Position numbers and translations under genes: made by a program
Assembly (NCBI GenBank): GCA_001600635.1
Contig: BCKL01000004.1
Location: 248,001-312,000 of the forward strand
DNA: 64,000 nt
From: Leucosporidium creatinivorum
Lineage: Eukaryota > Basidiomycota > Microbotryomycetes > Leucosporidiales > Leucosporidiaceae
Reading direction: 5' to 3'
Notes under the pieces: generated by a model
Told to the model about the DNA's origin: nothing
Seen by the model: only the letters and a program-made list of their open reading frames with translations
The model's database searches: none
Shown: piece by piece, positions 34,219 through 55,163 of the stretch
How positions within the stretch are numbered: the first letter of the stretch is position 1
Layout of the letters: each line of letters starts with the position of its first letter

Positions 34219-35376
34219 TCATCCGAGCGCGAGAGCATCAGCGCCGTACTCGTCGAGGAAGAGCAAAGTCGTAGACTCACCTGCAGCTACCCCGAGCGCT
34301 TTACTCTTTTTCGCAGCCTCGAGAGCTGCTTCACGAGCCCTGACCTCTTTCTGAGAGCGGCGAGAATCGAAGTCAGCGCTCGGCGATGAAAGTGAGCTGA
34401 GGTGACTCGCAATATTGTCCTTGAAGTACTTGGAAACAATCTCGAGGCCGTCTGTATGGCTTGACTGCAGGTCGAACGCCGCGAGGATGACGGGCGTGTC
34501 GGGGACAGGTCGGCTCAATCCCTGCTTGAGCCACCGCTCCCAGTCTGGGTTGAGGTTTGTCGAAGCGAGGGGTAGATATGGCCACACAGCGCTGGTGAAA
34601 GCTGAAAAGTCGACCATATCTGCGCGAAGGGTGTTCCGGCGTCAGCATCGTCGCCGAGCTTGCTGCACGCCGCGTTCTGCGGGCAGAGCTACTCACAGCA
34701 GCGACTAGTACCGCCAGTCTTAGCATTCTTAGCCACAGCCACCATTGACGCCGTGATCTGCTCCCCCTTGGCATGCTGCGCCCGCCTCGCCGCTCCGCCG
34801 CTCATCTGCTCCGGCGACGGGATGCCCATGGTGCCGATGCCGTCGAGGACAGCCTCAATAGGCTCCGAATAACAGCGCTCCCTTTCTTCTTCATAGGGGA
34901 TTAGCTCTGCCCGCAAAAGCGTGTACCGTTCTCGCAACGTTGGCGCATCGTCTCGGCGCTCGAAATGGAGGACGAGGACGTGGGTACAGGACTTGTCGGT
35001 GGGTCGTCCGAGTTCAAATATTGTTCGCCAGTAAACGACGACTTCGGAGGCTATGGACAGGGCGTATTCCTGCATCTCGTTGGCCTGAGTCGCTGCGTAG
35101 GGGTTGGCGAGCGCTTTGGCCTCCTCCGCTGCTGCTTTGGCACGTAGACGCTTGCATTCGTGGTTATGGATGGGCCACGCCGAAACTTGGCACGCTCGAG
35201 AGCAGCTGCGCGCGATGGTGGTCAACAACGGCGCCGAATCGCCGAATCGCTGAATCGTCTTACTAGGTGGAGAAGTCGCACTTCGAGCAGTAAAGAGTTT
35301 TCTTATGGGTGTAGGTCCCAGTCGGAACTCTGCAGGTGCTGCAGAGCATGTACTGGTCGGCGCCCAGGCGGCCCAT
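34219..35376 (-). CDS. MYND zinc-finger protein A
   Basis: First of five paralogues in the window. ATG 35376 opens MGRLGADQYMLCSTCRVPTG. The MYND finger is LCSTC, YCSKCDFSTYC, then SRACQVSAWPIHNHECK, with all C/H zinc ligands present. A phase-2 intron splits the codon of the Tyr before the second YC (TA, then C). The body has YALSIASEVVVYWRTIFELG, THVLVLHFERRDDAPTLRER, AVAKNAKTGG and LASTNLNPDWERWLKQGLSR, positions that correspond to the other copies. A 60-nt intron with a GC donor (34410-34351, branch GCTGAC) probably follows KYFKDNI; left unspliced it keeps frame. The 3' end is unsure. The frame stops at 34219-34221, but a GTGAGT donor just before could extend the protein to about 34036. 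Function unknown; MYND domains usually bind proline-rich partners. Confidence 0.78.
34351..34410 (-). other. Probable GC-AG intron in MYND gene A
   Basis: The donor reads GCGAGT in place of GTGAGT. A GCTGAC branch site and a CTCTCAG acceptor follow. The length of 60 nt is a multiple of three, so either splice outcome keeps the frame. Confidence 0.55.
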
Positions 35377-35708
35377 TGTCGGAGGCTGAGAATGAGGGGA
35401 GTCGATGGAGTTGAGGAGAAGGCCGAGTGAGAGGGCGCGAGTTGGGGGCGTAAGTGAGCAAGTCAGGCAGCTTGTAGTGCTGTAGGAGATGAGACGAGTT
35501 TAAAGCAGCGACACGGCGAAGGAAGACAAGCGTGCGCTGCTTAGCAGCTTAGCGCGCGGCTTTCCCCTCCTAAGCTTTCCTCGCTCTTCTCGTCGCCTCG
35601 CCTACAGCTCCGGGAGCTCAACAACTTATCTCTTGGACCTACGCTACCTCGCTGCAAGCTTACCCCTACCTCAATTCGCGCTCCGACCGCCAGGAAGCAG
35701 CCCTCGAA

Positions 35709-36860
35709 ATGTCGAGCGCGCCTGAGGGAGCCGCTGTCGGCTGCAGTGGATGCTTTCGACTGATGGGACCGAGGACTCTGGTCCCGAAGCCATTGCTGTG
35801 CGGTGCTTGCAAGACGTCTTACTAGTGAGACCGCCCTTCCTCTAGCCGAACTTGCCCCGAGCTCGTTCGTTCGTTCACTGACCTGTACCTCTGTCTCCCA
35901 TCTGTGGGACAACAGCTGTGGGCAAGCATGTCAGAAAAAGCACTGGCCCGAGCACAAGCCGTTCTGCAAGGCTCGTCGCCGAGGGGAGAGGTACGCCGAG
36001 GAAACCGCTCTCGCCGAGCCTCGTCAGGCTGCCCTGATGTCCGACTTCGATGCATACACCGATCTCATCTCCCTCGACGTCGCCCTACTCGCCCTTCGCT
36101 CAGCTTTTCGTTTCGGCCACCCAGGACAGCTCAACTCGACACACTATCTTTCCCTCACCTTCCTCTACGACTCGCGCGGGGCTGGCAAGACGCTGCAGGA
36201 GAGGTTCGAATTTGCACACTGGGAACTGGTAGAGTTCGACAGCCAGGACATCGACCGGCGGGGCTCAGGTTGGCCTACACGAGCTGAGCTGGCCGAGCGC
36301 CGACACGACAAGGAGCTTGTAGAAGGGACGATGAACGGCTTCGTCGAGTTCATGGCACACGATGTGAACGATAAGGATGCTCAGTCGGTATCGACGATAC
36401 GTGAGTTCAGTCCAGGAGCTGTATCGCGACTCCCTCGGCGCTCGAGTCGCTGACCTCCCCGGATTGACATCGCAGGACGAGACCTCGGTGTTGAGGTATC
36501 GGCGCTGTCGTTCTTCCGACACAAGGAGAAGGGCCCCATCTCCATCCTCCCCCTCAACAAGATGTGGGACGACACGCTCAATCGGGCTCTTATTCGTTCG
36601 CCAAAGTACATGAGGCCCGACCTCATGATCCTGGAGTTGTTGATGGCGGTAGGAGAGGAGATGGCCATCAAGGCGCTCAAATCGAGCTGGGGTCATGATC
36701 CTGGGATGCTCGAGGCAGCGTTGACGCGCGTCAAGGTGAGCTTCTTGCTCTCGCTGCTCGGTTCGGCGCTGACCGCTCGCTCTTGCAGATTGCGGTCGCT
36801 CAAGGCTATCTCAAGGGAGGACCAGGTGTCCGTGGATCAGTGATGATTGTGAGGGAGTGA
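35709..36860 (+). CDS. MYND zinc-finger protein B
   Basis: Divergent neighbour of copy A, 332 bp apart. ATG 35709 opens MSSAPEGAAVGCSGCFRLMG. The finger is GCSGC, LLCGACKTSYC, GQACQKKHWPEHKPFCK, complete in its ligands. The first intron again splits the Tyr codon (TA, then C). The body carries ALLALRSAFRFGHPGQLNST, HYLSLTFLYD and LQERFEFAHWELVEFD, the same order as in copies C-E. The later part has PLNKMWDDTLNRALIRSP, RPDLMILELLMAVGEEMAIK and LEAALTRVK. The last exon ends QGYLKGGPGVRGSVMIVRE at TGA 36858-36860. Four exons with GT/AG borders and GCTGACC branches give a clean model. Function unknown. It is the best-preserved copy and the natural reference for the family. Confidence 0.83.
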
Positions 36861-37074
36861 TTGCAAGGCAAGCTGGCGTCAGCGATTCTCAACGGCGAGG
36901 TTCGAAGGCAAGTTGACACAGCGGCGAAGCTCGGCGGCGTTTCTCTTTGCTGAGAACGGCTCGCCAATCGACATCTCGCGCTCGTTCTCTGCAACGCGAA
37001 GATGTAGTAAATCAGACTTTTGCTATTATGGTATAGATACAAGTAGAGTAGTCCTCCGGCTCAAACCTCTCCAA

Positions 37075-38721
37075 TCAAGCCCTCTCGACCGAGCCGACCT
37101 CACTCCTCGCATCCGCAAAGCTCTGCGCATCCGTCTCGGTCCCACTAGCAATACTGAGCGACCGCTCGTTAGGTCCTGTACCGCGCTTGGGCGTCTGCGA
37201 GCCCTCCTCGATGGGTTCGGCGTCGGCGGGCTCGGAGGTCGAGGGAATGGGAGGGGGAATGAGGGTCGGTTCTTTGGTCATGGAAGAGGATGCGATGGCG
37301 GAGTTGTCAATAGGTGCATCGGAGGGAGCGGAGAAGGGAGCGGAGGTGGAAGGGATGAAGGGAGAGCCACTCGGCGAGTCGAGTTCGGTCGTGGGTGTGA
37401 GGTTCGTAGGCGTGGCGAGGGGGTTGGTCGAGTGGGATCCGTTCGTCTCGGTGTCGTCCTTCTCGCCCTCCTTCCTGACAACCCTCTGCGCCTCCGTCTC
37501 GCCACCCTGCATACTCTCCCTCCGATTCGTCCCCTCCGACTCGAGATGCGAATCGGCGTCTCCCTGACTCAACAGATCTCCGCCCGTTCCCGTCGTCCCT
37601 ACAGTCCTGACGCTCGGCGCTCCTCCCTCCTTGACCATGCCACCCGCTGCGAAGCTTCGGCCGATGGCAGCGCTCCAAGTGCTCTTGCCTCCCAGGCTCT
37701 CATCGCTCGCTCGTCGACTTCCCGCCAATACCCTCACACTCGCATCCTCATCTGCACCTCCCTCATCTCCTTTCCTCCACGCACGAAGACCCGTCAATCC
37801 TCCTCCGCCCCAGCTGCCACTGCCGCTCGCTGCGGAGGTCGGCGCTCCTCCTCCGCCGCTCGCTCGGGAGAGGCTGAAGGAGGGAGCGAACGAGGAGGAA
37901 GCGAGGGTGAGCATGCTGGCGTTGTCGGCGGGAGGAGCGGCGGGGTAGGGGTTGTTGCGAGGGTGCGCGAGAGTGTGTCGAGGGACTTGAGTCGTTTCGA
38001 GCTCGATTTGGTCGGCGGCGGCAGGAGTAGTGGGGGTGGAAGGGGAACCGAGTGGAGTAGAGACGGTAGAGGAGGGGAGCGCTGAGAAGGTGATGGGAGT
38101 GCCCGAAAGCGAGGAAGGCGTGTGGGGCTGCGCGCCCAGGGATCCGCCGGAGGAGGAAGTGGGAAGGAGGTGCGAATGTCCGTGCAAAGGTGCAGCGGAA
38201 GGGTGGCCTGTACCGGGTACGACAGCGATCCTGTTGGCTCCTCCTCCCGAGTCGAGCGAAAGCGTTGTAGGCTTGGTCGAAGCGTAGCTCTTGAAAGTGC
38301 CGTGAGTCGGCGCGAACGAGGCGTTGCTGGTGGAATCGGTGCGCGAGATGACTGAGGATGCTGGCCCGACTGACGAGGGTGAGATAGGCCGCAGAGAAGC
38401 ATCCGTGTCGGCGCCCGACAAGCCTGAGAGCCTCGAGATGCTGTCGCCGTCGTCGTCGTCCTGCATGCTCGTGCTGGCCGTGTCGCCCGTGCTCGTACTC
38501 CTTGTCGAGCTGCGTACCTCCCCCAGCGGCACCACTTCCCCTACAGCTGCTGCTCCCTCTGCGCGTTGAGAGCTTGGCGAGGTGGTGCGTGCGTCGGCAG
38601 CGAGTTTAGGGCGGTTCTTGTTGCCCGACAGGAAGCGCGAAATGGAGCGAAATAGTCGCTTCTGAGTCCCTTGCTGCTGGCGACCAGGATGTGACGGCTG
38701 AGCTTGAGCTACGGTGGCCAT
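37075..38721 (-). CDS. Ser/Thr-rich disordered protein, single exon
   Basis: 548 aa without introns, from ATG 38721 (MATVAQAQPSHPGRQQQGTQ). I do not know its function. A basic patch near the start (KRLFRSISRFLSGNKNRPK) could bind membrane lipid or act as a nuclear signal. The rest is Ser/Thr/Gly/Pro-rich. Short ordered-looking blocks stand out: FKSYASTKPTTLSLDSGGGA followed by NRIAVVPGTG, PITFSALP, DNASMLTLASSSFAPSF, and DEDASVRVLAGSRRASDES followed by LGGKSTWSAAIGRS. I believe similar blocks occur in uncharacterised Ser-rich basidiomycete proteins (memory, not searched). RRAS and RRES look like basophilic kinase sites. In a window of intron-rich genes the lack of introns is notable. The plus-strand 390-aa frame across it is its shadow. 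Confidence 0.75.
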   Translation of the reverse strand: MATVAQAQPSHPGRQQQGTQKRLFRSISRFLSGNKNRPKLAADARTTSPSSQRAEGAAAVGEVVPLGEVRSSTRSTSTGDTASTSMQDDDDGDSISRLSGLSGADTDASLRPISPSSVGPASSVISRTDSTSNASFAPTHGTFKSYASTKPTTLSLDSGGGANRIAVVPGTGHPSAAPLHGHSHLLPTSSSGGSLGAQPHTPSSLSGTPITFSALPSSTVSTPLGSPSTPTTPAAADQIELETTQVPRHTLAHPRNNPYPAAPPADNASMLTLASSSFAPSFSLSRASGGGGAPTSAASGSGSWGGGGLTGLRAWRKGDEGGADEDASVRVLAGSRRASDESLGGKSTWSAAIGRSFAAGGMVKEGGAPSVRTVGTTGTGGDLLSQGDADSHLESEGTNRRESMQGGETEAQRVVRKEGEKDDTETNGSHSTNPLATPTNLTPTTELDSPSGSPFIPSTSAPFSAPSDAPIDNSAIASSSMTKEPTLIPPPIPSTSEPADAEPIEEGSQTPKRGTGPNERSLSIASGTETDAQSFADARSEVGSVERA

Positions 38722-39246
38722 TCTTTCTCGCAGACGATGAGAGGGATGCGGGGGTGCTGAGCGGCGGGAAGCGGTGTAGGAAGCTGTAGGGGAGTAGGGT
38801 GAGCTGTTGTTGTACAGCTTGGATCGTTTGAGCTTACTGTAGAGGCTTAAGGTGTACTCGCGAGGCGAAGCGGCGGTGTGGCTGGAGCCAAGTCGTCGAG
38901 TCGCCGGCTCAGCTGCCCTTCTCGGAGAGGCGGAGGGGCGATGTCATCATGGTTGCCTCCTAGCCTGAGGTGCAGTGCAAGACTAGTCTTGCGCGGTGTA
39001 CGATATCAGGGGGTGTTCTTCAGCTGATGTCTGCATTGCGGGAGGCTACAGAATTGCTCGCAAGTAGCGCCGAGCTCTCCCTCGAAGGCCGAACCGAGCT
39101 TCGCGAGCTTGCAAGAGGACGAGAGTGGGTCGTTGCAAGTTGGTTGAAAAGCTGATCTGAGTCTCTTCCTCCTCATCACTCCTGCCCGAAAGCAGAAGCG
39201 CAAGCGCAAGCGAAAGACGAAGCCAAACGAAACGGCGCCGAGCCCG
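38722..39246. other. Intergenic region, no gene seen
   Basis: Upstream of the Ser-rich gene and downstream of MYND gene C. Only short motif-free frames are present. Confidence 0.4.
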
Positions 39247-40631
39247 TTACTTTCCAGCGCCAGTCTGCGAAGAATGGCCTCGATCAGGGGCTGAGTTGTA
39301 GGAAAGCAAGACCTTAGAACGTACCTTAGCTGCGTCGAGTTCTGCAGTCGCCTTCTTGAAGAGCTGCGAGAGAGGGAGACAAGGAGGGCAAGGAATAGTC
39401 AACGCTTTGGCGACGGTCTCGAGGAAGACGGCAAGATCGGTTCCCACCTCTGCGAAAGCACGGAAAATTGTTTCCCTCATATCTCCGTCCAGCTCGGGGG
39501 CGACCGCCTGAAAGCGAGAGGAAGTCAGCAAACGACGCGGCTCGGCGTTGGCTCTCCAGCTCGGAGCTCGGTGGGCGTACCTTGAACAGGTTACAGAGCG
39601 CCAAAGGTCTGGGGGTAGACGGTGCTTTTCCCGCAGCATCCCAGACAGCTTTCTTCGCCCGCTCGTACGTCTCGCTGGCGAAGAGGTCGATGATGAGGAG
39701 GACGTAGCTCGGGCGACCTGGGTGCGAGAGGGCCTCGGCGAAGGTGGTTTGCCAGCGAGAGTTGATGCTCATGTCGCAAGCGTCGATGTACTGCCATGAC
39801 CGAAAAAAAGCGATTTGGTCGGGGTTCACTGCATTCGGCCAGGGTCAGCAATGCGAGCGAACCGAAGGGGAAGGACTGACCGATCATGACAGGCTCGCTG
39901 CCCTTGATGTCCACAACACTGTAGCTGACGGCAACTGCTGCACTGTTCTCGTCTTTCTGCTTCCGCTGAAGGTCGACGTTCTGCAGTGTTGGTAGACCTC
40001 GCCAGATGTCCGAGAGTCCTTGCGATTGAGTCGCTGCCAGCCCGACGTGAAAGGGTACGACGGCAGCATCGATGAGCTTGAAGCTGATAGAGTCGTCCGT
40101 TTCTTTGTGACACGAGAGGAAGAGCTGCAGCATGTGCGTGTGGTTGCGCTGGTCGGATTTGCCGAGCTTCATCGCCGAACGAAGCGCGAGGAAGGTGACT
40201 TCGCCGACAATTTTGAAGGCGTATGCTCGTAGCTCGGCGGCGATGACTTCGGTGTAGGGCTGTGAGAGAGCGAGCTCTTCGACTTGGTGCAGCATGCGCC
40301 CTCGCTCCCTACACGCTCGCTTGTGCCCCGAAGACCAGTCTTTGGCCTGCTCCCTCGTCAGGAGCTGTCAGCGTGAGGGGCGTAGACGGAGGTAGAAGCT
40401 CATCTTCACACACTTGGCACTCCTTCGAGCAGCTGTAAGTGTACGAGAAGAGAGAGGTCAGCCGGCTGCCTCCGCATCCGCGAAGGACAAGTCAGCTTAC
40501 TAGGCTGTTACACAGCATCTCGAGCACCACTGAATTGGGATCCCCAAGCTTTGGCCCATGAGCTTGCGACAGACAAAGCACCCGACGACCGCCTCAGAAG
40601 GGAAGCGACTCGAGATGGGAGGCTGCTGCAT
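39247..40631 (-). CDS. MYND zinc-finger protein C
   Basis: ATG 40631 opens MQQPPISSRFPSEAVVGCFV. The finger is GCFVCRKLMG, WCSRCCVTAYC, SKECQ, then AKDWSSGHKRACRERG. Intron 1 splits the Tyr codon as in the other copies; intron 2 sits right after the CQ pair, a position shared only with copy D. The body has EVTFLALRSAMKLGKSDQRN, HTHMLQLFLSCHKETDD, WQTTFAEALSHPGRPSYVLL and IIDLFASETYERAKKAVWDA. The tail reads PLSQLFKKATAELDAAK and then either TGAGK after a 60-nt intron with a GTACGT donor, or reads through that in-frame intron; both end at 39247-39249. The shared second intron suggests that C and D arose by a recent tandem duplication. Confidence 0.8.
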
Positions 40632-41245
40632 CGCAAAGAGCTGAAGTCGAGCAAGAGGGCGAACGAGTGAGAGCTAGGGGGCGGGCGGGTGATGTCGAAG
40701 GGATGGCTGCTCTTCCTCCAGCTTAGCTGCTCCTGCGAAGCTGTCGGAGGCGAGAGTTAAGAGCAGCGAGGTGTGGCAGGAGGACAAGGGGCGGATCGAG
40801 CTTCCCATCTCGTCTCGGTTCGCAGAGGTCAGGCTGGCTTTGTAGGTCGTTTGATCTTGCGGTCTCAGGCAGTTGCCTTGAGCTACTCGCAAGTGTTCGA
40901 ACGCCTGCTGACCTCCTCGCCCATGCTGAGGACATACGCCGCTTCTTCGCCGACGCCGAGTCGACCCAAGCCTCTGGCTCTACCCACTCCACGGATGCTC
41001 CTCCTTGACCCTCGCTAATCAAAATCGATTAATCGATTAAGCATAGCTGTATCTACATGCTCGTCTACTAAGCCTCCCGCCGTCCAGCACCTCTCGAAAC
41101 GTCGGCGACCAGCGCCGAGGTCGCTTCTCATTTCCGAATCGAGCCTGTAAAGACGAGGTCGTTCAGCAGCAGATAGCTCGTAGGGGAAAAGAAAGTCCGA
41201 GGATACCTGCTCTGCGTCCCATCGATGTCAAACTCGAATCGTCGT
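40632..41245. other. Intergenic region between MYND genes C and D
   Basis: This contains the promoter of copy C. A perfect 16-nt AT-rich palindrome (AATCGATTAATCGATT) lies at 41023-41038, about 390 bp upstream of the copy C start. No gene is seen. Confidence 0.5.
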
Positions 41246-42594
41246 CTATTTGCGAGCTTGAAGCTGCTCGGCGAAGAGGGTCAGCCGAAGGTCGGGAGCA
41301 GGCGAGGGCGAGACAACACGCTCACCTCTTTGATGGCACGAACAGCTTTCTCCTTGATGTCCTTCTCGGCGATGAGACCGGCAAACTGTACAAGAGCGGA
41401 GTCAGCGGTCGGCGAAGAGAGCGCCGAAGTCGAAGCGCCGAACCTTGACCATCTCACGCAGCATTCGAGGCCTCGAGCTGGGCTGCATCGCTAGGCCGCT
41501 CCAAATGACATCCTTAGCTCTCTCCTCCGTTTCACTTGAGAAGAGCTCGAGGATGATGAGCGATGGACCGGGGAGCTCGGGGTTGGAGATGGCGACGGCG
41601 AATGTACGATCCCAGTTGGGGTTGAGGGACATCTCTCGAGCAGAGAGGAACTCCCATGCCGAATATCGAACTGCCATTTGACTCTCGACTGCGAACGAGG
41701 AGGATCAGCGCTGCAGGACAACATCGGGCGCCGACTTACGATGGGGCCAGCACTGTCCTGTCTTTGTGTTGACCATCATGAAGACTATAGTAGCCGAGGC
41801 GTGGTCGCTCGCGGTGTGGGTCCTAGTTGCTCTAGTAGCGTTGACGAGCGCGGCATGATGTGCGTTTGTCGCCGGCGAAAGATGGGAGAGCCCTTCCCCG
41901 AACGAGACGAGCTCCGACCTCGAGAAGGTGAACTTCTTGCGCAGCTCCGATGCTGCCGCTCCTCCATCGTATTCGAACCAGAGGCGAAGGATCTTTGAGG
42001 TGGAACACTGCTGCTTCTTCCCAAGCGCAAAGGCGGACCGCATCGCGAGCAGCGTGACCTCGCTCGTCAGATCGTCGATATACGCCGTGAGATCAGCTTG
42101 AAAGTTTGCGACTTGTGGCTTGGCGAGGACTCGCTCTTCCCGCATGGTGTTGGTCTTGACGGCGGCGGCGCAGGCCTTGCGGTGAGCTGGCCAGTCGGCG
42201 ACCTGTGAAATTTTAGGGGGGTAAGATTGGCGATGAACGTCGAGCAACGACAGTCAAGCAGCGAAAGTCGAGCAACGAAAGCGAGCAGCGAGAGTCGAGC
42301 AACCGAACCTACCTGGCACTCGCGTCCACAGCTGCAGAAGGGCCCGAGATTAGCTCGGCGCTGGCCGTTCGGTTCGTTCTTACTCACTAGCTGGCCTCAT
42401 GACACTTTCCACACTTCTGTAGACGGAGCAGACCGTGCTCCGCTCCGAGCTTCTTATGGCATACATCGCACTCGACCAGGCCGTTCTTCGTAGAGGCTAC
42501 TATTTTCGGTTCCGAGTCGAGGGGTTCGAAAGGGCGAGGGGCGTTTGAGCGGGATGAGGGTGTAGTCGATGAAGATTCTGTAGTTGAGTAGAAT
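41246..42594 (-). CDS. MYND zinc-finger protein D, 5' end unresolved
   Basis: The finger reads VECDVCHKKLG, LQKCGKCHEASYC, GRECQVADWPAHRKACAAAV, with all ligands. Introns fall in the Tyr codon and after CQ, as in copy C. The body has EVTLLAMRSAFALGKKQQCS, KILRLWFEYDGG, LRKKFTFSRSELVSFGEG and ATIVFMMVNTKTGQC. Next comes LSLNPNWDRTF-like sequence (read as MSLNPNWDRTFAVAISNPEL) and PSLIILELFSSETEERAKD. It ends AIKELQARK at TAG 41248-41246. Upstream of the finger the frame stays open to about 42773 but contains no ATG, and no ATG-bearing first exon is clear before about 42957. The 5' coordinate given is the likely acceptor (CTACAG) of an upstream intron. Intron 2 holds a minisatellite. Either a distant first exon exists or the start is lost. 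Confidence 0.72.
42235..42303. repeat. 14-bp minisatellite inside a MYND gene D intron
   Basis: Five imperfect units of about 14 bp with plus-strand consensus GAAAGTCGAGCARC (one unit is 13 bp). The array fills most of intron 2 (about 42203-42312), making it longer than its counterpart in copy C. Confidence 0.85.
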
Positions 42595-43164
42595 GTGGGG
42601 GTAGCGAGAGCGCCGGCGCGGAAGTCGGAGACAAGAAACGAGGCAGAAGCGAGCAGGTCGTGGTAGGAAAGAGACAGGCGATTTGATCTGCGACGGCCGC
42701 TTGGAGGCGTCGGATGGTCCGCGCTCTCTGCAGGGCAAAGGATTTTTTGCGAGGCTGAGTCAAGCTGTAGCTAGCTAGCGACTAGGTAGCGTCTCTAGCT
42801 GGAGGCGAGGTAGGCGCCAGCTAGCTAGACGGTCGGCGCTGAAATCCAGCCGGCGAGAGAATCGAACGTCGCCCTCGAACGCCGAAACGTCTCTTGAGCT
42901 ACACTGAGGTTACTTCACGGGCTGTTCAGACCTCTTTAGACAATCTTCGCCCTGTCATCCACCTCCAGCTCCCACAGCAGCAGTTAAAACTGTCCGCCTC
43001 TCACTCTCGCCGAGCGCCATCGCCGAAAGTCGAGCCTGAACAAAGTAGCTACATTGCCCCGTTTGGATCAAGGCGCACTACACAAATTGAGAGGAGTTAC
43101 GGATAAAGCTGCACGAGAGTAGAGGCGCTCAACGCCCCAAGTGTCCATCATCGCCGACAAGCGG
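42595..43164. other. Upstream region of MYND gene D
   Basis: This may hold the missing first exon and the promoter of copy D. Two AGCTAGCTAG stretches lie at 42769-42778 and 42819-42828. No gene could be defined. Confidence 0.35.
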
Positions 43165-45238: not shown

Positions 45239-45576
45239 GGCGACCGAGTTGAGGGGGGAGAGCAACGAGCGACGGGGGGTGAGCGCGTCTTGGCGAGAGG
45301 CGGTTGCTGAAAGGGAAAGAGATGGATGTAGGTCGATCTGGAGCGAGCTGTAGGCGTGTAGCAGCCCGAACGAGCAGAGAGCGGCGAGACGAGAAACGAG
45401 CGAGGAAGACGTCGAAGGCCAACCTGCGGCGGTCACGAAGCGCGAGAGGCGGGGCAGCTCACAGCCTCCTTATAGCTCCCTCTTTGAATTGGCGAGACCA
45501 ACAGCAAGAACGTGTAAGAAAGGTTAGGTACAGAAGGAAAAGGGAAATATCCAGCTACAAAGCCCGACACAAAAAC

Positions 45577-46267
45577 TCAAGGCTTCGTAGCCCCTCCGAG
45601 CCTCTCCAACAGCTCGCGCTCCTTGGCCTCCGCCGCTGCTAGTCGCTGGTCGAGTTCAGACAGCTCGGCCTGCTTGGACTGTACGGACTTCATTCTGCCG
45701 GGCGAGGTCCGAAAGTCAGCAAGCTGCTACAGAGGCGTTCTCGTCCTTCGGCTCCCCCCACTCGGCGATCCTTCCTCCTGCAGTCTCCAACCCCGGCGAA
45801 TGCGCACCTACTTGTCACTGACGCTAGCCTGGGTGTTCTCCAAAGCAGCTTGGGCCTGCTTGTGAGCAGCCGCGACATCCATCGCCTGGGAAGACGGCCG
45901 TCAGCGTCGTGTTCAGGCGGTATTGAGCTGGCCTTCTGCAGCGGATTGGTAGAGCTGTAGGAGAGCAAAGGGGAGTGGCCAAAGGGTGTACAACCTACAT
46001 GCTGAACCTCGTCGTGAGCCTGTCCCTTCTTGATGGCTAACAAGTCGGCGTGACGCTGCTCAACTTCTGAGGCCTCTTTCGCCAGCTGCTCGGGGGTGTG
46101 GCTGTTGGTGCAGCGAGAGAGGCATAGAAAGCTTATCACTTCTGCACCGCTGTAGTCCGAACTCAAGAAGGGACTCACGAGTACTTGGCGGTTTCGAACT
46201 CGAGCCTCGACGCGAGTTGAGGAGGGAGCTCGATTCCCTGTCCAGGAGTAACAGTAGTGTCGGACAT
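45577..46267 (-). CDS. Small coiled-coil protein of unknown function
   Basis: Four exons encode about 125 aa. ATG 46267 opens MSDTTVTPGQGIELPPQLAS. The protein is almost entirely helical and charged: HTPEQLAKEASEVEQRHADL, LAIKKGQAHDEVQH, AMDVAAAHKQAQAALENTQA, KSVQSKQAELSELDQRLAAA, ending LLERLGGATKP. Heptad-like Leu/Ala spacing suggests a coiled coil. No signal peptide or membrane segment is seen. Splice sites are canonical with CTGAC branches, which supports a real gene. I do not recognise the family. Confidence 0.65.
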
Positions 46268-46746
46268 GATGTGCTGGCTGTGCTGTAGCGAGGCTGAGAC
46301 GCTAGCTAGTTGTGGTGAAAAGCGAGCGAATGAAGCGGGAGCCAAGAGTGTTCGCTTCGGCGAGATTCGAAGGCTCTGGTTCGAAGTGGGGCAGGTCGAA
46401 CGAGGTCTGATTCAGTAGAGAGACTCAAATGAGTCGAACGGTCTACAGAAACGATTGAATGGCACTTTGCGACTTCCCGACATGGAGAGGGGGTGCGAAG
46501 CCATCGCCGAGCTCGGCTCGCTTCAGAGAGCGAGCGAGAGACCACACTGACGCCGGGCTCGCCACACACGTTGTACTGCAGAATTTTAAAAAAGAGCTCC
46601 TGGACTCAATGGACGGCGGCGACTTCCCCAAGACCGCCTTGCCTTCTTGGAGGAGGAACAGGGCGAGCTTCATCGCCGAGCAGAAGTCCGGCCACTCTCT
46701 TAACTCAGCATGACGCGCCGAGCTCGGTCTATAGCACACCACACAT

Positions 46747-49400
46747 CTACCTCCCCCATCCCATCCCCAACTTCATACTCCTCGCCTCCTTTGCCAACTC
46801 CCACATCGCCCGCCTCAGCTCGGCGATGTCTCCCTCCTCCTCCTCCATCTCAGCCGAGACACCAGGCTGAGGGAACAAGAAGCCCTCGTCGCTTTTGCAG
46901 TGCTTCTCCTCTCCTGCGGCGGAGGGAAGGATCCCGTCGAGAAAGTAGGAGCGGGCGGTGAGGGCGGTGCAGAGGGAGGGGTGCGCGAGGGAGCAGTGGC
47001 CGAAGCTGCGAGGGGTAGAGGGAGAGTCAGCTCGGACCGAAGAGGTAGGCAGATACTCCAAGATGGAGAACGAGACCTGAGCTAACTCACCCATCTTGCA
47101 CTATCACCCTCGCGCTATCCTCGCCGAAGGCAGCGGCCATCTTGCGCGCCGAAATGAGGGGAGTTACGGGGTCGGCCGTCTGCGAGAAGAAGACGATGGG
47201 GTAACTGGGAGGGTGTGAGTGAGCAAGCGAGATGATCAGCTCTCCACCTCAAACGCTGACAGCGCCGAGCCACTCACGCCGTCTTCTTGAGGCCGTCCTT
47301 TCGAGTCCAAGGTCCTGCGAGTCAAGCAGCTGATCAGCTTCGCTCGCTCATTGAGGTTGAATCAAAGCTCACCTCTATACACCTCCCTTGCCTTTGCACT
47401 CCACCTCCTGCACTGACTGACCCACATGGCCCAAATGTTGCCGGTCGGCGACAGCGAGTCGAGCTCGAGCATGTAGGAGTGGAGGGTCGGCAGTGAGGTG
47501 TCACTGAGGGCGGATGGGTCGGTATCGGAGCACATGATCGACTGCTCGTAGCGTGTCGGAAGGGAGGTAGACAAGGGAGAGGAAGCGGAGGGCAGGCAAA
47601 GAAGGGTCAGCGCCGAGCTTTGCTGTATGGGGTTCGAGAGATGGCCATATGAGTTGGCGGTAGTACTCACAGCAGTAGCATCCATTCCCGAGCCCATCCT
47701 CCGATGGAAGACGTTGTCCAAAGGATCCTTCGCTCGGTCCAGCTCGTCGTTCGAGGCGTTGGCGAGCTCGTAGAGCGCCGTGCCGTTACCTTGCTCGAGT
47801 GAAGCGAGAGCGGAGGCGAGTTGAGGCCTAGTGAAGAGTGATGGGAGAAGCGAGAGTCAGCGTCCCGTGTCGAACGCTGCAGCGAGGGTGAACTCACCAG
47901 CTCTTCGGCGAGTAAAGCGAGTGGAAGATCTGCGAGGGCGTTTGTCCAGTCAGTACAGCCTACAGACAGACTACAGCGACAGAAAAGCTCACAGCATATT
48001 GCACCTGCGACGCGGTGACCACTCCTGGCCCCACCTTCGACCTTCCGACCGGCAAGGGCATCTCCCTCAGCTGCTCGATCAAGTCCTGCACTCGTCGTCC
48101 GATCTCCTTCGCCGTCGAGTTCTAGCTAGCGAGGTCGCATCCGAGTGGTCCAGAGGAGGCGCAGGAGGCGATAAAACCGTCGTAGGTCTGTCGGCGAAAG
48201 TTCGAAGGGGGGTGAGCTTCGCCGAGAAGGTAAGGAAAGGCGAGGACTAACTTTCTGAGTGTCGTTCATGCCGGCTCGACCCCAGTCCCAAAAGTTATTG
48301 GTGTAGGCGGCCGAGTCGGAGACGCCGTCAAGCCATACGCCTGCAAAAGTCGGGGAGCAGCATAAGCGCCGAGAGCGAGAGGAAGGCGATGAGGTCAGCT
48401 AACCGGAAGACTGCGGATATGAGATGAGATGAAGACGCACGCTTCACCAGATCAGGGAACATGGCCGAGAACGTAGCGCCGAGGATGGTCCCGTACGAGA
48501 AGCCCATGTACGAGAGTCCGTCCTCGCCGAGCGCCTCCAAGATCCGCTTCATATCCCTCACCACCGTCGCCGTCGAGCTACTGCTGAGCATATTCCTCGA
48601 CTCCTCCTCACTGCTCTGGCAAGCCGCATCGAGCGATCCAGCGAACGAGTCGTAGCGAGCCGTCCAAGCGAGCTCGGCGGCGAGGGTTTGTGAAGCCGAC
48701 GAGTTGGCGGGGGTGTAGTCGTGGATCAGGCCGAGCTGTTCGACGTCCCTCGCGAATCGAGCTGCATCTCCCGAAGTGGGGAAGCAGTCGAGCGCCGGGC
48801 TCGTGAGGTTGACGCTGCGAGGGTCCCATGAGAGGATGTGATAGCGCCCTTGAACGATGGTCGAGATCTTGCGGCCGGCTCGGACGACGAAGTTGTGACC
48901 TGATCCTCCTGGTCCGCCGGGGTTGATGAAGAGGTAGCCGAGCTGCTCTGAGAGAGGCGCCGAGGAAGGGAGCATGCGAAGCGCGAGAGAGACAGTTTCG
49001 GTCGAGTTGGCGTCGGTGTAGTCTGTTGCTGGGAGGTCAGCGATGAACGACGAGAAGTTGTCTAGCTAGGGAACGTACCAAGAGGTACAGTGAGGTAAGA
49101 GCAGAGCGTATCCGTAACGTCCGGGCAGGGAGACCATGCGAGGCCTGGCGCGAGCGGTACAGCGGGCTGCAGGTCGTTCTGGTCAACTAAGGAGCAGCCT
49201 AGCAGTCTTATGTAGCTTACCTGGGTCTCCCGACAACCTATGAACCGCTTCAGGACGTCCACCACCGACGGCAGCGGCCCATCGAGCTGACAGAAGGCCG
49301 CGGCGATTAGCAGGCATGGAAGCAAGTAAAACCTTTTCCGCGATGTGCGGCGAGCTGTAGGTGCTGCTGTAGCTTGTTCGAGGTCGAGTTTGAGCGACAT
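46747..49400 (-). CDS. S33-family serine peptidase (tripeptidyl aminopeptidase-like) with an in-frame TAG
   Basis: Alpha/beta-hydrolase peptidase with a TAP-like C-terminal part. ATG 49400 opens MSLKLDLEQATAAPTARRTS, and residues about 23-40 (RFYLLPCLLIAAAFC) form a signal anchor, so the enzyme is probably membrane-tethered or secreted. Marks in order: QLGYLFINPGGPGGSGHNF (oxyanion loop), YHILSWDPRSV, LSYMGFSYGTILGATFSAM (nucleophile Ser in GFSYG), then SQTADPVTPLISARKM (acid) and VQDGFGHCSLAHPSLC (His). The triad is therefore complete. In the middle, GFIASCASSGPLGCDLAS meets TAG at 48122-48124 and continues in the same frame with NSTAKEIGRRVQDLIEQLRE and PLPVG, a normal part of the family. 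No intron visible to me removes it. A CAG to TAG change, a natural null allele or a base error are the options. Confidence 0.8.
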
Positions 49401-49645
49401 GTTGAGGGAGAAGTGAGAGCGAGGTCGAGGCTGGCGAAGTGGGGGAGACCATGCTGAGGTTCGGGATTTGCTCTGCTGCAGCCGGTCAAGAGCTTGGAAG
49501 CGATGGTGGATGCTTGATAATGTATGTGACCCGCCCGCTCGGTCAGCTCTCGGCATGGAGGGCCCCTTTCGGCGGAGGGTCGAGCATCATCGAACGCCGG
49601 TTGCTCTTTCCTTCCTTCGAACCACTCGCTTCTCACTTCGACACG
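49401..49645. promoter_or_regulatory. Divergent promoter, S33 peptidase and glyoxalase I
   Basis: 245 bp lie between the start codons. No clear stress element was recognised. Confidence 0.4.
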
Positions 49646-50621
49646 ATGCCGGGCCCTATGTTGAACCACACCATGTTCAGGAGTACGTCCATGCTCTGCT
49701 CTACTCGAAGCCTGCCTGCTCCCCTTTGCCGAAAGAAGATGTTGCACGCCTCAGCCTCACGAAGAGGCCTCCCGGGCTACAGGAGGATAGCTGACCGCTT
49801 GTTCTGTTTCTCTTTCACCGTATTACAGTCAAGGATAAGGACGTATCGCTTGACTTCTACACCAGGATCATCGGAATGGAGCTCCTCGATTCGAGCAGCG
49901 GTTCGTAGTTCGCTGCAGGGCGCCGGCGCTCGTACTGACGCTTCTAATGACGCCATACCTCACCATTACACCCTTAGGCTCGGATTTTACCAATTACTTC
50001 CTAGGCTTCCCGGAGGAGGGCAAAGCCGACCTCAGCGCCGAGCAGAAGAAGGCGACCAAGACGGCGCGCCAGGGTGTGCTCGAGCTGTGCCACAACCACG
50101 GAACCGAGGTGAGTTCACTCTATATCAGGTTCAACATCTTGGCTTACCCACATACCCTACAGTCCGACCCCGAGTTCAAGGGCTACGCCAACGGCAACAC
50201 CGAGCCCGGCCGTGGCTTCGGACACATCGCAATTTCCGTTGATGATGTCGAGAAGGAGCAAGAGCGTATCATGGCCCTTGGAGTCACCATGAAGAAGAAG
50301 ACGACTGTCGGCCGCATGCGCGTAAGTCATCTCGGCCGACCCTCCGGACCGAGCGAGACGGGTTTCGGCGCTCTCACTTGCTTCATGCTATCCAAAACTC
50401 TTTGCACACAATTGCTGACCCCGTTTTTGTTCCTGCAGCACATCGCGTAAGTCTCTCAGACGTCTTTGCTTGGAGAGGCGCCGACTCGCTCTTCGGCGAT
50501 CGCTCGTCTCGCTCCCTGCTGACCATGAACGTCCCCCTACACTACTACAAAAACGACCCCCTACAGCTTCGCCCTCGACCCCGATGGCTACTGGATCGAA
50601 CTTGTCCCCAACAAGATGTGA
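49646..50621 (+). CDS. GLO1: Lactoylglutathione lyase (glyoxalase I)
   Basis: Isomerises the methylglyoxal-glutathione hemithioacetal to S-lactoylglutathione; a metal-dependent cytosolic enzyme. The joined protein has 153 aa and one glyoxalase unit, like the human enzyme and half the yeast one. The start is MPGPMLNHTMFRIKDKDVSL, then DFYTRIIGMELLD. Metal ligands fit the family: His8 (NHTMFR), Glu72 (GVLELCHNHGTE), His101 (GRGFGHIAISV) and Glu147 (DPDGYWIELVPNKM). Six exons are needed; the fifth is only 8 nt (50439-50446). The human enzyme has Gln at the first ligand place, while yeast has His, as here. The long first intron (about 49684-49829) is the only large one. Divergent from the S33 peptidase. 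Confidence 0.92.
50439..50446 (+). other. 8-nt micro-exon of GLO1
   Basis: CACATCGC lies between a CTGCAG acceptor and a GTAAGT donor. Joined to its neighbours it yields GRMRHIAFALDPDG, matching the family; skipping it breaks the frame. Confidence 0.8.
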
Positions 50622-50996
50622 GGCCGGCATTGCTAGGTCAATTGAAACTCGGAGACTGGTCGGAATAGCCTGCATTCGTCGATTCGAGGCTTAGCGAGAG
50701 CGAGAGATGTAGTGAACGAGCACCGAGCCTTGGGGGCATCTCGAGCGTCGTCGTCGTAGAGAAGGAGCGAGGAAGCCGGCTCCGGCGAAGGCGAAGTCGA
50801 GTCTGTCGAGCTCAATAACGGGCAGGGGCGATCCGGCAGACTAAGCAAGCTACCGAGGCCATCTTACTACTCAGCCCCACCGACCGAATTCCGCATCCCC
50901 GCTGCTGAGCCCCAGCCTTGACGGCCCTGCCGCTCTCCTTCCGCCAACATCTCGCCTCGATTCTCTCCGCCGAAAAGCCCGACCGAAGCTACCAAA

Positions 50997-53748
50997 ATGG
51001 AAGGCGCTGGCTCACCACCTCCAGCTACTAAGCGAGCCCCAGCCAAACGAGGCGCTCGAGCTGTAAGTTGAACCCGTGACTCTCCGCGAGCATGAGCTGA
51101 CGGCTCCTCTCGCTCTCTCGCCTCCGCTACTGGCGTTCCGTCACCTGCAGTGTGTACAGTGCAGAAAGCTCAAGAAGACGTGCGAGCCTGATGCTTCAGG
51201 GTCATTGTCCTGCACGAGGTGCTTGAGCAGCGGGTCGGAGTGCGTTTACGACCGGCCAGCGAGCTCTGTAGTCGACGATGCCGGTGAGCAGCGGTGCCTC
51301 TAGCTTTATATCTACAGCGCTTATTCCCACACCACTGCACAGGACTGAACCGACTGAGCGCCATTGAGGCATCCCTCTCGACTCAAGAACGCCGTCTCGA
51401 TACCCTCGTCTCCTCGGTGGGCGAGATCTCGACGACGCTCGCAGAGATCATGGCGTACCTGCGAGGCGGAGGAAGCTCGCCAGCTTCTGTAGCACCACAA
51501 CACACGCTCAGCCACCACCAGCCGCCGATTCTCCCCACTCACGCCTCGCCGCAATACGCCCATCTCTCGCCTGCACCAAATCCTCCTTCACTGCCATCCT
51601 TCGGCGCTTCCATCCTCAACCCTCCCCTCTCCGGCCGAGACGACACCTCTTCGCCCCGAAGCTCCACTTCTCGGCTCGAAGCTCTCGCAACCCTCGCTTC
51701 GCAGCCTTCACCCGACGGCCATGTCGACCGGTTCGCATCGAGGCTACATGCGCCGATACAAGCGCTGGCGGATGCGGCGGATGAGGTGCAGAGCAAAGAA
51801 GCCAGCGGGAGTGGGGAGAAGGGCGACGGCGAGGGGCACGGCAGTGAGGAGCGGCCGAGGAAGAGGAGTAGGATCGGCATGGGAGCGGCATTCTCGGTCT
51901 CGCCCTCGACCAAGCAGTTCGACGTGGTAGCGAAGGGGATCGTCTCGGACCGAGATGCTCGCGCTCTCGTCTTGCTCTGGCTCAAGGAGCTCCAACCCTT
52001 CTGCTCCATCCTCGACCCTCTCACTGAAACCTATACCACCCTCCGTCGCAATCGCTTCCTATTCGACGTCATCATCCACACGGCTCTACGCGCGCAAGGA
52101 GGGCCAGCGCCGGCGAGTAAGGAACTCGTCGCCGTCGCCGAGCAGACTCGGTCGGCCGCTCAGCAACTCATCTTCGACGCTTCTCCTCCGATTGAGGTTA
52201 TCCAGGCTTTACTGGTCATGGCTTGCTATCACGAGTGAGTAGCTTTGGTCTGCTTCTTTCCTCGTCGGAGTCGAAGGACCACCAAGCCGAGAATGCAGAG
52301 CTGACCACCTTCCTCTCTACAGCGAGCCCTACCTCATCTCTGGCTACGCCATGCGTCTCGCTCTTGCTGCTAGAATGGACACCATCTTCGAGCAAATCGA
52401 CGAGCACGGCTGGGACAAGACGGACGAGCGAGCCAAGCATCTCACGCTCCAGCTTCGCGTTTGGCTCTACCTCATCTTCCTCGAGTTCAAGTGAGACTTC
52501 TCTCTTCCTTGAGCTTCGAGCTCTTCGCTGACACCCTCTCCTACCTCTAGGCACAGCCGAAGTACCGGCCGCCTCATCCTCCTCCGTCAAGACGACGTCG
52601 ATTTCGTCGAGCAGAACGCCGACAAGCTTCTAACCCTGCACCACTCGATCGCCGACGACCAACGCACCGTCGCCAATCTCAAGCTCACCTTTATCGAGCG
52701 TCAAATCATCCTCACCTCACGCCGCTTCAAGGATGGAGAAGACGACATGGCCAGCCGAGTCGCCTACGTGAACCGCATGAGGGACGTTCTCGTTGCCAGG
52801 CATAACTTCTATGATTCTCGCCTGGGTGAGCTGTCTCTTCCTCGCTTCCTCGCCTCGTCGAAGCTGACCGTCTCCCTTCTCGCAGCCATCAAGCATCCCT
52901 CGCCTCTCAGCTGGGCTCGCCGCTCACAACTCCGTCACCACTCCGAGTCCATCATGTTCCTTTCGGCCAACGTTTTCGGCGAGCTTCTCCTCGAACCCAA
53001 CTCGCAACCCGAGGTCCAACAGATCGCTCAAGATACCCTCATTGCCGCTCGCTCGGTCGTGAGGACCGTACTGCAGTCACCGGCGTACACTTCGAGCGTC
53101 AAGTTCTGTGGCTTCTTGTTCAAGGTGAGCTTCTATTTAATCGTGCGAAGGGGAGAACGGCAGCTGACTCGCCTCGGCACTCGCAGGTTGATCTCAGCTT
53201 CGCCGCTCTCCTCACCCTCAAACTTGCCAAGCTCTTCCCGCATGCAGTCGACAGCGCCGATGTCGTCGCCGACGTGGATCATCTCGCCGACCTCTTTGCC
53301 GATACGTCGGGATCGCAACGTTACGCCGCGACGCTTCGGTGAGTCGAGCCTGCTCCCTCGTCCGAGGAGCATCGCTCGCTGACCTCCTTTGCCCTCTTTA
53401 CATTCTTACTCTTCACACCATCGTCTTCCCCTCATCTACAGTTTCACCCGCGACCAATACCTCTCCTCCATCCAAGAGCCCTCCGCCTCCTCCGCCTTCG
53501 TCCCATCGCCGCCGAAACCCGAAGAGTCCTACGCCTACGAAGACGGCCAACTTCCTCCCTGGTTCGCACCACAGCACCTCGACATCAACGGCGCCGGCGG
53601 ACGAGGTACCGGTGCTCTCCTGCCCGGCGAGATGGAGATTGATTGGAACAACGTCCCGACGAGCTTCTTCTCGACGGATCAGATGATGGGTGGGAATGAG
53701 TGGATGGGGACGGGTTTCCCAGATATGAGCTGGTTGGGAGCAATGTAG
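50997..53748 (+). CDS. Zn2Cys6 fungal transcription factor
   Basis: Gal4-type regulator with a fungal-specific middle homology region. ATG 50997 opens MEGAGSPPPATKRAPAKRGA, a basic stretch that may be a nuclear signal. After an intron the zinc cluster is CVQCRKLKKTCEPDASG, then SLSCTRCLSSGSEC, with all six Cys (spacing 2, 6, 9, 2, 6). A short coiled coil follows (IEASLSTQERRLDTLVSSVG), then Ser/Pro-rich sequence. The regulatory region has VLLWLKELQPFCSILDPLTE, FLFDVIIHTALRAQ, EVIQALLVMACYHE, GYAMRLALAARMDT and LQLRVWLYLIFLEFKHSRST, followed by GR, which is the typical middle homology block. It ends MNPDMSWLGAM-like sequence (read as GTGFPDMSWLGAM) at TAG 53746-53748. Targets are unknown. Introns are short. 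Confidence 0.92.
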
Positions 53749-53984
53749 CTTGTGTGGTCAACTTGCTTTGATTTCGCTTCATCTTGCGTCGGAGGAGCAG
53801 AGAGAGGACCGCCGAGAGTCGCGAGTTGAGGCTCTCGACTTCGCGAGGCAGTCGGCTGGATCTACTCGGATAGGTTACAGAGCATCTAATTCTAGTCGTT
53901 CCTTACTTCCCACCCGTGCCACGATGATCCAAGGATGCGACAGCCTGCATGGCGAAGCGAAGCGGAAGGGGAGAATTTCCAAGG

Positions 53985-55163
53985 TCAGCTGCTCGTCCGC
54001 GCTGGTGAGCTACAGAAGAGGTCAAGAAGTACACCCGCCTGCAACGGCCCCTCGAGCCAATCCGGTACGCGTCCATGGACTCGTCTGATAGCCGTGAGAG
54101 CGCCTTCCCTGCCCTCGCTCGCGACCAAGTCGATGACCATGAGCTCGAGATACTCGAAGGGCTTGGGACGCTCCATGACCGCTCGGTACGTAGACTCCCA
54201 CTGGGTATTGACCTTGAGCGTAGCCAAGTCCCAAGGATATTGCAGACTCGTCCCCAGATCGGCGCCTGCGAGAGTTGGCCGAGAAAACGGTCAGCCGTGA
54301 TCCGAGGTGCTGGAACGGTCGGTACAAGGTGAGCAGGGCTAAACATACGGCAACATGTGTAAGAGCCTCCTGCGCGCTCCATGCCGTGCCACATTACGAA
54401 GACTCGGTGAAGCTCAGCTGGATTCCTCTGCGCCTGATCCTTGCGTGCTGCAAAATCTTGCGGTGTAGGCATCGCATCGTTCGGCCAGCGCTTCTTGGTC
54501 TCCGCAATGGTGAGCACGAGGGCGTGGTCGAGGATCAGGCGGTTTCGGAGGTCAGGCTGCTCGCGGCGCCATTGAAAGACGACTGCGAAATTCGGCTCAG
54601 CGACGCTCGGTGACGAGGGCTGAAAGGAGCTCACGGCTCAGCACATGCGTATGATTACGCTGCTGAGGAGTTCCGAGGTACATGGCGGAACGAAAGCAGA
54701 GATTCGTCACCTCCGAAGCAAATTCCTGAGCGTACGCCGAGAGGTCCTGGTCAAGCGCTACGAGACGAGGGGCGGCCATGGCTTTGGTGTCGAAGTGTGT
54801 AGCGACCTGTGTCCTGAGTGTGAGCATGGAGATGGAGAGCAATGGAGCGGGAGGCGCACCTGGCGGAACTCCTTGCACCGAGCCTTGTGCACCTTCCAGT
54901 TCGCGAGCTGGCAATCCCGGCTGCAGCTGCTTCCAACTTTAGCTCGACTTCTCTAGCGCCAAAGCTGCAGATGAACGACTTACTAAGCACTCTTCTTACA
55001 TCCACCGCATACGAGCCGCTTATCCTCACGCGACTTTCCGGTGGAGGATCTTGAAGCACTGGGCACATCCCGTCTGCATGCCATCGTCGTAGAAGGGCGT
55101 CCCATCGGGCAGGGTGGACATCACTCCCTCTGGATTGGCTGCATTGGTGCCGAGAGTCGACAT
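53985..55163 (-). CDS. MYND zinc-finger protein E, probable frameshift in the finger
   Basis: Fifth paralogue, separated from the main cluster by about 11 kb. ATG 55163 opens MSTLGTNAANPEGVMSTLPD. The first ligand pair is GCAQCFKILHRKVA, after which the frame meets TGA at 55028-55026. The next pair, RLVCGGCKKSAYC, is in a different frame about 10 codons on. The Tyr-codon intron (TA, then C) and SRDCQLANWKVHKARCKEF then follow correctly. One extra base near 55026-55030 explains the break. The body is well kept: EVTNLCFRSAMYLGTPQQRN followed by HTHVL, ILDHALVLTIAETKKRWPND, NTQWESTYRAVMERPKPFEY, and LELMVIDLVASEGREGAL. The 3' end at 53985 is less certain. It may be a pseudogene or carry a base-call error. 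A second ATG-initiated product without the finger is also conceivable. Confidence 0.7.

What the first reader, a model, noticed from the sequence alone, without database searches (positions are those of the whole stretch)
34219..55163. A local family of five MYND-finger genes with a shared, uncharacterised C-terminal region
Copies A (34219-35376), B (35709-36860), C (39247-40631), D (41246-42594) and E (53985-55163) each have a MYND finger whose Tyr codon is split by a phase-2 intron (TA before it, C after it). After the finger all show an alignable body: an LALRSAF.LG...Q..THxL.L.F.YD block, an A..V.....N.KTG block, and N..W...F..AL..P.RP...L..IDLF.SE..ERA..A. MYND fingers are known protein-interaction modules; the body does not resemble SET or another domain I know. 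Clustering plus intron identity points to repeated local duplication, and the copies differ in decay. This is the best candidate for an undescribed system in the window.
Basis: partly seen in the sequence, partly recalled or inferred. Interest (0 to 1): 0.75.

Follow-up and report, generated by a model that had tools for sequence, protein, structure and literature searches.

The report
Large yeast MYND-finger gene family
Five neighbouring genes in a yeast genome belong to an old family of at least 45 genes that join a known protein-docking zinc finger to a protein part with no match in the domain databases searched; the family is real, but its job is unknown.

Summary
A, B and C are intact spliced genes at the stated coordinates; D has no start codon that I could find; E has a frameshift in its finger. 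All five share the phase-2 intron in the finger tyrosine and a phase-1 intron after the second body block. With the finger removed, a profile of the A-E bodies hits 40 of 40 further genomic copies (E 2.3e-5 or better); 1,000 shuffles reach 3.4 bits at most.

It is not a local family of five. The genome, of a Leucosporidium-like yeast, holds at least 45 body-bearing copies on 8 contigs, among about 142 MYND loci. A and B have orthologs in L. creatinivorum (58%, 63%), C one in an unnamed assembly (67%); window copies share 21-32%. The duplications are old.

The body matches no Pfam family; SET/SMYD is not supported. AlphaFold gives an alpha/beta body of moderate confidence without a convincing fold match. 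Zinc ligands and peptide-binding residues are mostly kept. Best reading: soluble adaptors that grip proline-rich motifs, with a hypervariable middle in the body. The adaptor function is inferred, not shown.

The parts
34219..35376 (-). Copy A: exons 35376-35264, 35205-34697, 34619-34219; 340 aa, intact; MYND finger about 35343-35154 (intron inside)
   Evidence: spliced model, Pfam zf-MYND E 1.5e-8, ortholog P0007, 58% identical
35377..35708 (.). 332-bp intergenic region between the divergently oriented starts of A and B
   Evidence: models; the orthologs P0007 and P0001 are both listed with a contig of 108,427 bases, which suggests that the pair is kept together
35709..36860 (+). Copy B: exons 35709-35824, 35916-36400, 36476-36735, 36789-36860; 310 aa, intact; finger about 35742-35967 (intron inside)
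   Evidence: spliced model, Pfam zf-MYND E 4e-11, ortholog P0001, 63% identical over 41% of B
39247..40631 (-). Copy C: exons 40631-40501, 40432-40414, 40346-39881, 39828-39581, 39507-39247; 374 aa, intact; finger about 40580-40311 (introns inside)
   Evidence: spliced model, Pfam zf-MYND E 1.6e-7, P0008 67% identical over 59% of the C body
41246..42485 (-). Copy D from just before the finger on: 42485-42388 (part of an exon), 42331-42313, 42202-41740, 41688-41444, 41385-41326, 41263-41246; start codon not found; finger about 42470-42170
   Evidence: Pfam zf-MYND E 1.8e-10. The intron 41443-41386 has an unusual donor (GTTCGG)
53985..55163 (-). Copy E: exons 55163-54984 (frameshift inside the finger), 54926-54860, 54806-54635, 54582-54349, 54265-53985; finger about 55067-54875
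   Evidence: the part after the frameshift matches Pfam zf-MYND, E 1.2e-8

Best explanation
The five genes are old members of a large multigene family in the genome of a Leucosporidium-like basidiomycete yeast. Each member joins an N-terminal MYND zinc finger to an alpha/beta body of about 200-300 residues that is not in Pfam. Shown: one family by body sequence and introns; at least 45 copies; zinc ligands mostly kept; A, B and C have orthologs outside this genome; the closest paralog pairs evolve under constraint. Inferred: the proteins are soluble intracellular adaptors. The finger grips short proline-rich (PXLXP-like) motifs of partner proteins, as in BS69, ETO and DEAF-1. The body supplies a second contact whose middle segment differs strongly between copies, so that each copy would couple a common docking step to its own target. 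Duplication and, in at least one pair, exchange of DNA segments keep changing the set.
For: Body-only homology and conserved introns. Finger: of 32 copies with a residue at every tested finger position, 30 keep all eight zinc ligands; Tyr is kept in 42 of 43, Gln in 39 of 45 and Trp in 37 of 45. These three correspond, at the same spacing, to the three conserved non-zinc residues of the peptide site of BS69, ETO and DEAF-1 (passages of PMC4742278 and PMC3555993). No hydrophobic stretch of membrane type in the aligned part of A-E (highest 19-residue mean 1.51; termini not included). dN/dS 0.25-0.46 in 6 of 6 close paralog pairs. Mean pairwise identity 40% in the finger, 27% in the first body block, 11% in the middle, 26.5% in the C-terminal block. 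Orthologs.
Against: No partner, expression or localisation data. All three peptide residues are intact in only 21 of the 32 whole fingers; six related copies on C4 have Ala for Gln. 18 of 45 models contain a stop or frameshift (E's own is not among the 18), so part of the family may be dead, although some of these may be errors of my models. PXLXP motifs are not enriched inside the family (1 found, 3.4 expected), and partners elsewhere were not searched. The 11% in the middle segment partly reflects uncertain alignment. One paralog pair and no population data stand behind the exchange.
Confidence: 0.6

Rival explanations
1. The family is a diversifying recognition repertoire (self/non-self or defence against parasites), with the finger as docking part and the middle of the body as variable sensor.
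For: Large copy number in clusters; a near-random middle segment between conserved blocks; a mosaic pair with a near-identical finger half and a divergent C-terminal half; frequent divergent neighbours among the MYND loci of the genome.
Against: dN/dS stays below 0.5 in 6 of 6 close pairs, and in the mosaic pair dS rises together with dN, so positive selection is not shown. No population data; no known recognition domain in the body.
Confidence: 0.12
2. SMYD-like proteins that lost or strongly changed their SET domain.
For: The best PDB sequence matches of the family profile are SMYD2, SMYD1 and SMYD3.
Against: Those matches lie within profile positions 6-56, which is the finger. No SET match in Pfam for A-E at E up to 10 (the program's filters drop most matches above about 0.1). 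In SMYD the finger interrupts the SET domain (abstract of PMC4521844 in the listing); in A, B and C it starts at residue 12-18.
Confidence: 0.03
3. The body is an enzyme; conserved Arg, His, Asn and Asp residues form an active site and the finger only targets it.
For: Arg (40 of 45), His of the THxL block (36 of 43), Asn (34 of 41), Trp (37 of 42) and Asp (31 of 37) are conserved across very divergent copies.
Against: Each of these is replaced in several copies, the His in D among them, and the Asn in all six copies of one C4 clade; no enzyme family match; no convincing fold match.
Confidence: 0.12
4. Mostly non-functional debris of past duplications, or of a mobile element that captured a MYND gene.
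For: 18 of 45 models disrupted; D without a start found and E frameshifted; a sub-threshold rve match in C (E 0.019).
Against: A, B and C are intact, with intact introns and orthologs elsewhere; constraint in 6 of 6 pairs; the rve match is far under its cut-off (15.6 against 32.6 bits) and was not seen in A, B, D or E; only 3 short imperfect inverted repeats around A/B.
Confidence: 0.13

Closest known systems
MYND fingers of ZMYND11/BS69, ETO (RUNX1T1) and DEAF-1
   Same: Zinc ligands, and the Tyr-Gln-Trp peptide-binding residues at the same spacing (passages of PMC4742278 and PMC3555993)
   Different: Those proteins carry other domains (SAND in DEAF-1, coiled coil in BS69, from the same papers); no Pfam domain but the finger was found here
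SMYD lysine methyltransferases (SET and MYND)
   Same: The finger is the closest in PDB by sequence
   Different: No SET match, N-terminal finger, body not matched
MYND expansions reported as counts
   Same: Raised MYND numbers: Rhodotorula strains on average 24.7, SD 15.1 (passage of PMC10662464); R. glutinis 26 and seven Agaricomycetes on average 41, but M. lychnidis-dioicae only 7 (table in PMC4469406); M. perniciosa 25 (PMC2644716); an expanded orthogroup with MYND fingers in the alga E. debaryana (passage of PMC8226300)
   Different: Those are counts of domains or orthogroups; the passages that I saw describe no body family. Here about 142 MYND loci in one 27.7-Mb genome; counted on DNA, so not the same method
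CcmS of Synechocystis (PDB 9iur, 8zlh)

Membership tests
zf-MYND (PF01753) | Match above the curated Pfam cut-off | tested here: met
   A-E score 31.7-43.2 bits against 22.7 (D from just before the finger, E from after the frameshift)
zf-MYND (PF01753) | C4-C2HC zinc ligands | tested here: met
   30 of the 32 family copies with a whole finger keep all eight; E does not have its first CxxC pair in frame
PXLXP-binding MYND (BS69/ETO/DEAF-1 type) | Tyr, Gln and Trp of the peptide site (sequence criterion) | tested here: met
   Tyr 42 of 43, Gln 39 of 45, Trp 37 of 45; but all three together in only 21 of 32 whole fingers. A, B, C and D have all three by the alignment
PXLXP-binding MYND (BS69/ETO/DEAF-1 type) | Binds a PXLXP-type peptide | not testable with these tools
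   Needs a binding assay
SMYD / SET | SET domain sequence interrupted by the MYND finger | tested here: not met
   No Pfam SET match at E up to 10 in A-E; PDB SMYD matches end with the finger; 11-17 residues precede the finger in A-C
SMYD / SET | SET fold of the body | tested here: inconclusive
   Model of moderate confidence (best of five: mean pLDDT 70.5, pTM 0.62; the others 55.4-66.6); a structure search cannot exclude a family
Any Pfam-A domain in the body | Match above the cut-off outside the finger | tested here: not met
   None in A-E; no family at all in P0007 and only MYND-type fingers among the 11 rows of alignment A4
CcmS-like fold | Clear structural match over the domain | tested here: inconclusive

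The most novel reading that the evidence does not exclude
This yeast lineage has built a modular recognition repertoire of 45 or more MYND proteins: a constant docking finger, a framework body and a hypervariable centre, with finger halves kept alike by segment exchange while C-terminal halves diverge, and with other MYND families of the same genome arranged as divergent gene pairs. It could serve self/non-self or parasite recognition.
Probability: 0.1. Interest if true: 0.75.

Novelty: new variant of a known kind. Interest (0 to 1): 0.45.

Why it matters
MYND counts are raised in several Microbotryomycetes, but the passages that I saw give only numbers. This family shows that one such expansion consists of a definable protein family with its own uncharacterised body, largely fixed introns, old orthologous members and a pattern of constant and variable parts. 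If the adaptor reading is right, it would be a large lineage-restricted set of interaction proteins that can be tested in the laboratory.

Tried and rejected
Protein database: B alone gave 1 hit, P0001 of L. creatinivorum. Full-length alignment A1 gave 6 hits: P0001, P0002 (relative of the C29:95632 copy) and P0004 (B's C-terminal part, unnamed source) by body, P0003, P0005 and P0006 by little more than a finger. Body-only alignment A2 gave 2 hits, P0007 (L. creatinivorum) and P0008 (unnamed source). In some searches only about 8,000 candidates were scored, and relatives must share exact 5-residue words, so absence from Rhodotorula, Microbotryum or other fungi is not shown.

Other: PXLXP motifs inside the family not enriched. 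Inverted repeats around A/B: 3 short imperfect pairs. Rfam: no match in the window at gathering thresholds. dN/dS was spoiled by frameshifts in four of six pairs and redone. The ORF printout used the wrong strand for several loci and was not used for the family; one piece of it went by mistake as sixth protein into and matched nothing over a cut-off. Eight weaker models (score 46-87) were left out of the 45. Two finger matches that pass only together with their neighbours were left out of the 99.

Literature: ten full-text searches. MYND with Leucosporidium: 1 paper, domain counts; MYND-type with Leucosporidium: none; MYND with Pucciniomycotina: 2 papers, one with domain counts, the other (PMC3562529) not opened. 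Papers opened only for passages: PMC4469406, PMC10662464, PMC8226300, PMC2644716, PMC5602860, PMC3555993, PMC4742278. Subscription papers are mostly not held.
Full report
WHAT IS THERE. The five copies are real. D is open from its finger to the stop at 41246, but its first-exon frame has no ATG in 95 codons, and no spliced start was found with donor GT[AG]NG, introns of 45-129 bases and an ATG within 250 bases of the donor. E has its first CxxC pair and the rest of the finger in different frames; the rest of the gene is open once spliced. So the copies do differ in state: three intact, two damaged or incompletely modelled.

FAMILY. The phase-2 intron in the finger Tyr and a phase-1 intron after the second body block are in all five. 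Of 53 hits, 45 pass score 95 and span 110 or more profile positions; the 8 weaker ones (3 on C29, 2 on C10, 2 on C5, 1 on C3) are left out of all counts of 45. Controls (45 reversed stretches, 45 shuffled stretches, 48 other window segments from 24 overlapping places) reach at most 24.9. The Tyr intron is in 37 of 43 models covering the site, the phase-0 intron after Cys-Gln in 33 of 44, the phase-1 body intron in 30 of 42. A profile from the A-E bodies without finger matches 40 of 40 other members at E 2.3e-5 or better (database size set to 10,000), and none of 1,000 shuffled bodies above 3.4 bits. The 40 had been spliced with the family profile, which helps them; the raw six-frame matches to B (E 1.8e-20 for the best outside the window's contig) do not depend on that.

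GENOME. The window is part of a 27.7-Mb genome in 63 contigs. The 45 copies lie on C4 (25, from 234 to 766 kb), C29 (10, one of them, at 139153, a composite model with nine introns), C7 (3), C10 (2), C3 (2), C33, C1 and C5 (1 each). Of the zf-MYND matches I counted 99 over the cut-off; two more that pass only with their neighbours were left out. Only 2 of the 99 overlap the 45 copies, because the family's fingers are split by introns, so there are about 142 MYND loci. The named relatives in the protein database, P0001, P0002 and P0007, are from Leucosporidium creatinivorum; P0004 and P0008 come from an unnamed source. B and its ortholog are 63% identical, so the genome is a relative, probably of that genus, and not that species (inference).

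AGE. Window copies share 21-32% identity. Orthologs are closer: A with P0007 58%, B with P0001 63% over 41% of B, C with P0008 67% over 59% of its body. The tree of 49 rows joins each of these pairs with supports of 99 or 100, A next with C4:341249 (99/97), E with C4:344599 (97/77), C with D only weakly (88/77); 16 of 46 inner branches are open. P0001 and P0007 are both listed with a contig of 108,427 bases, so the divergent A-B pair was probably present in the common ancestor. Local duplication may have made C and D, but the duplications are old.

SELECTION AND EXCHANGE. Six paralog pairs of 50-73% identity give dN/dS 0.25-0.46 (Nei-Gojobori; dS exceeds 0.8 in five). The closest pair, C4:373050 and C4:408935, is a mosaic: 90-93% DNA identity upstream, 97-100% over finger, introns 1 and 2 and the first part of the body, then 42-76% over the C-terminal half, intron 3 and the 3' end, then 83-100% to the end of the fetched DNA. 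dS in successive codon windows is 0.0, 0.25, 0.58 and 0.89 (a fifth window, 1.09, may run past the coding end), so this looks like segment exchange or conversion between old duplicates and not like positive selection (inference). Their C-terminal halves are still each other's nearest (54%, next 25% and 22%). Another pair, C4:765405 and C4:729082, is 71% over 1,770 bases in one alignment. Across the family, mean pairwise identity is 40% in the finger, 27% in the first body block, 11% in the middle and 26.5% in the C-terminal block.

WHAT IT IS. Pfam sees only the finger in A-E above cut-off and nothing in P0007. The family profile matches PDB sequences over the finger, SMYD2 first; matches elsewhere are weak (E 0.022 or worse). 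AlphaFold on P0007 with 11 rows: mean pLDDT 70.5, pTM 0.62 for the best of five models; two long helices, a beta hairpin, short helices, a second hairpin, C-terminal helices. Copy B gives a similar order at low confidence. Structure searches gave no convincing match.

HOW IT MOST LIKELY WORKS. Shown by sequence: 30 of 32 whole fingers keep all eight zinc ligands; Tyr, Gln and Trp are kept in 42 of 43, 39 of 45 and 37 of 45, all three in 21 of 32. In BS69, ETO and DEAF-1 the corresponding residues take part in binding PXLXP-type peptides (passages of PMC4742278 and PMC3555993). Hence I infer a soluble adaptor: the finger docks on a proline-rich motif, the body makes a copy-specific contact. No membrane-type stretch is seen in the aligned part of A-E. 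Partners, place and process are unknown. A six-copy clade with Ala for Gln may have changed or lost the docking step.

COMPARISON AND NOVELTY. By test it carries a MYND finger, and by sequence and architecture it is not a SMYD protein. Raised MYND counts in related yeasts are in print as numbers (PMC10662464, PMC4469406: passages and a table seen). I found no description of this body in the searches listed under Tried and rejected. I rate it a new variant of a known kind.

Noticed in passing
G000 contigs C31 and C11 (e.g. L059 and L061 on C31): Another MYND type with the finger at the C-terminal end (in 3 of 3 frames scanned, L002, L005 and L007, Pfam sees only a finger over cut-off). Ten divergent pairs have fingers 2,133-2,292 bases apart (8 on C31, 2 on C11).
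   Followed up: partly
G000 contig C6, 1040450-1208654 (e.g. L060): A third MYND type with the finger near the start: six divergent pairs with fingers only 154-164 bases apart. Over 142 MYND loci, the 43 neighbours within 3.5 kb are 21 divergent, 4 convergent, 18 tandem; 21 to 4 has p 0.0009, but the pairs are probably copies of each other and not independent.
   Followed up: partly
G000 C4:373050-373983 and C4:408935-409906 (L014, L016): Mosaic pair about 35 kb apart in opposite orientation: near-identical finger half and similar flanks, strongly divergent C-terminal half.
   Followed up: partly
G000 C31 near 203.6 kb and 233.5 kb (L005, L006): Inverted duplicate about 30 kb apart, 95.8% identical over about 3 kb.
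   Followed up: no
G000 C29:85952-154471 (L042, L043, L045, L046): Body-family copies stand back to back with further MYND genes at 486-603 bases (4 pairs); some partners give weak body-family models and may be distant members.
   Followed up: no
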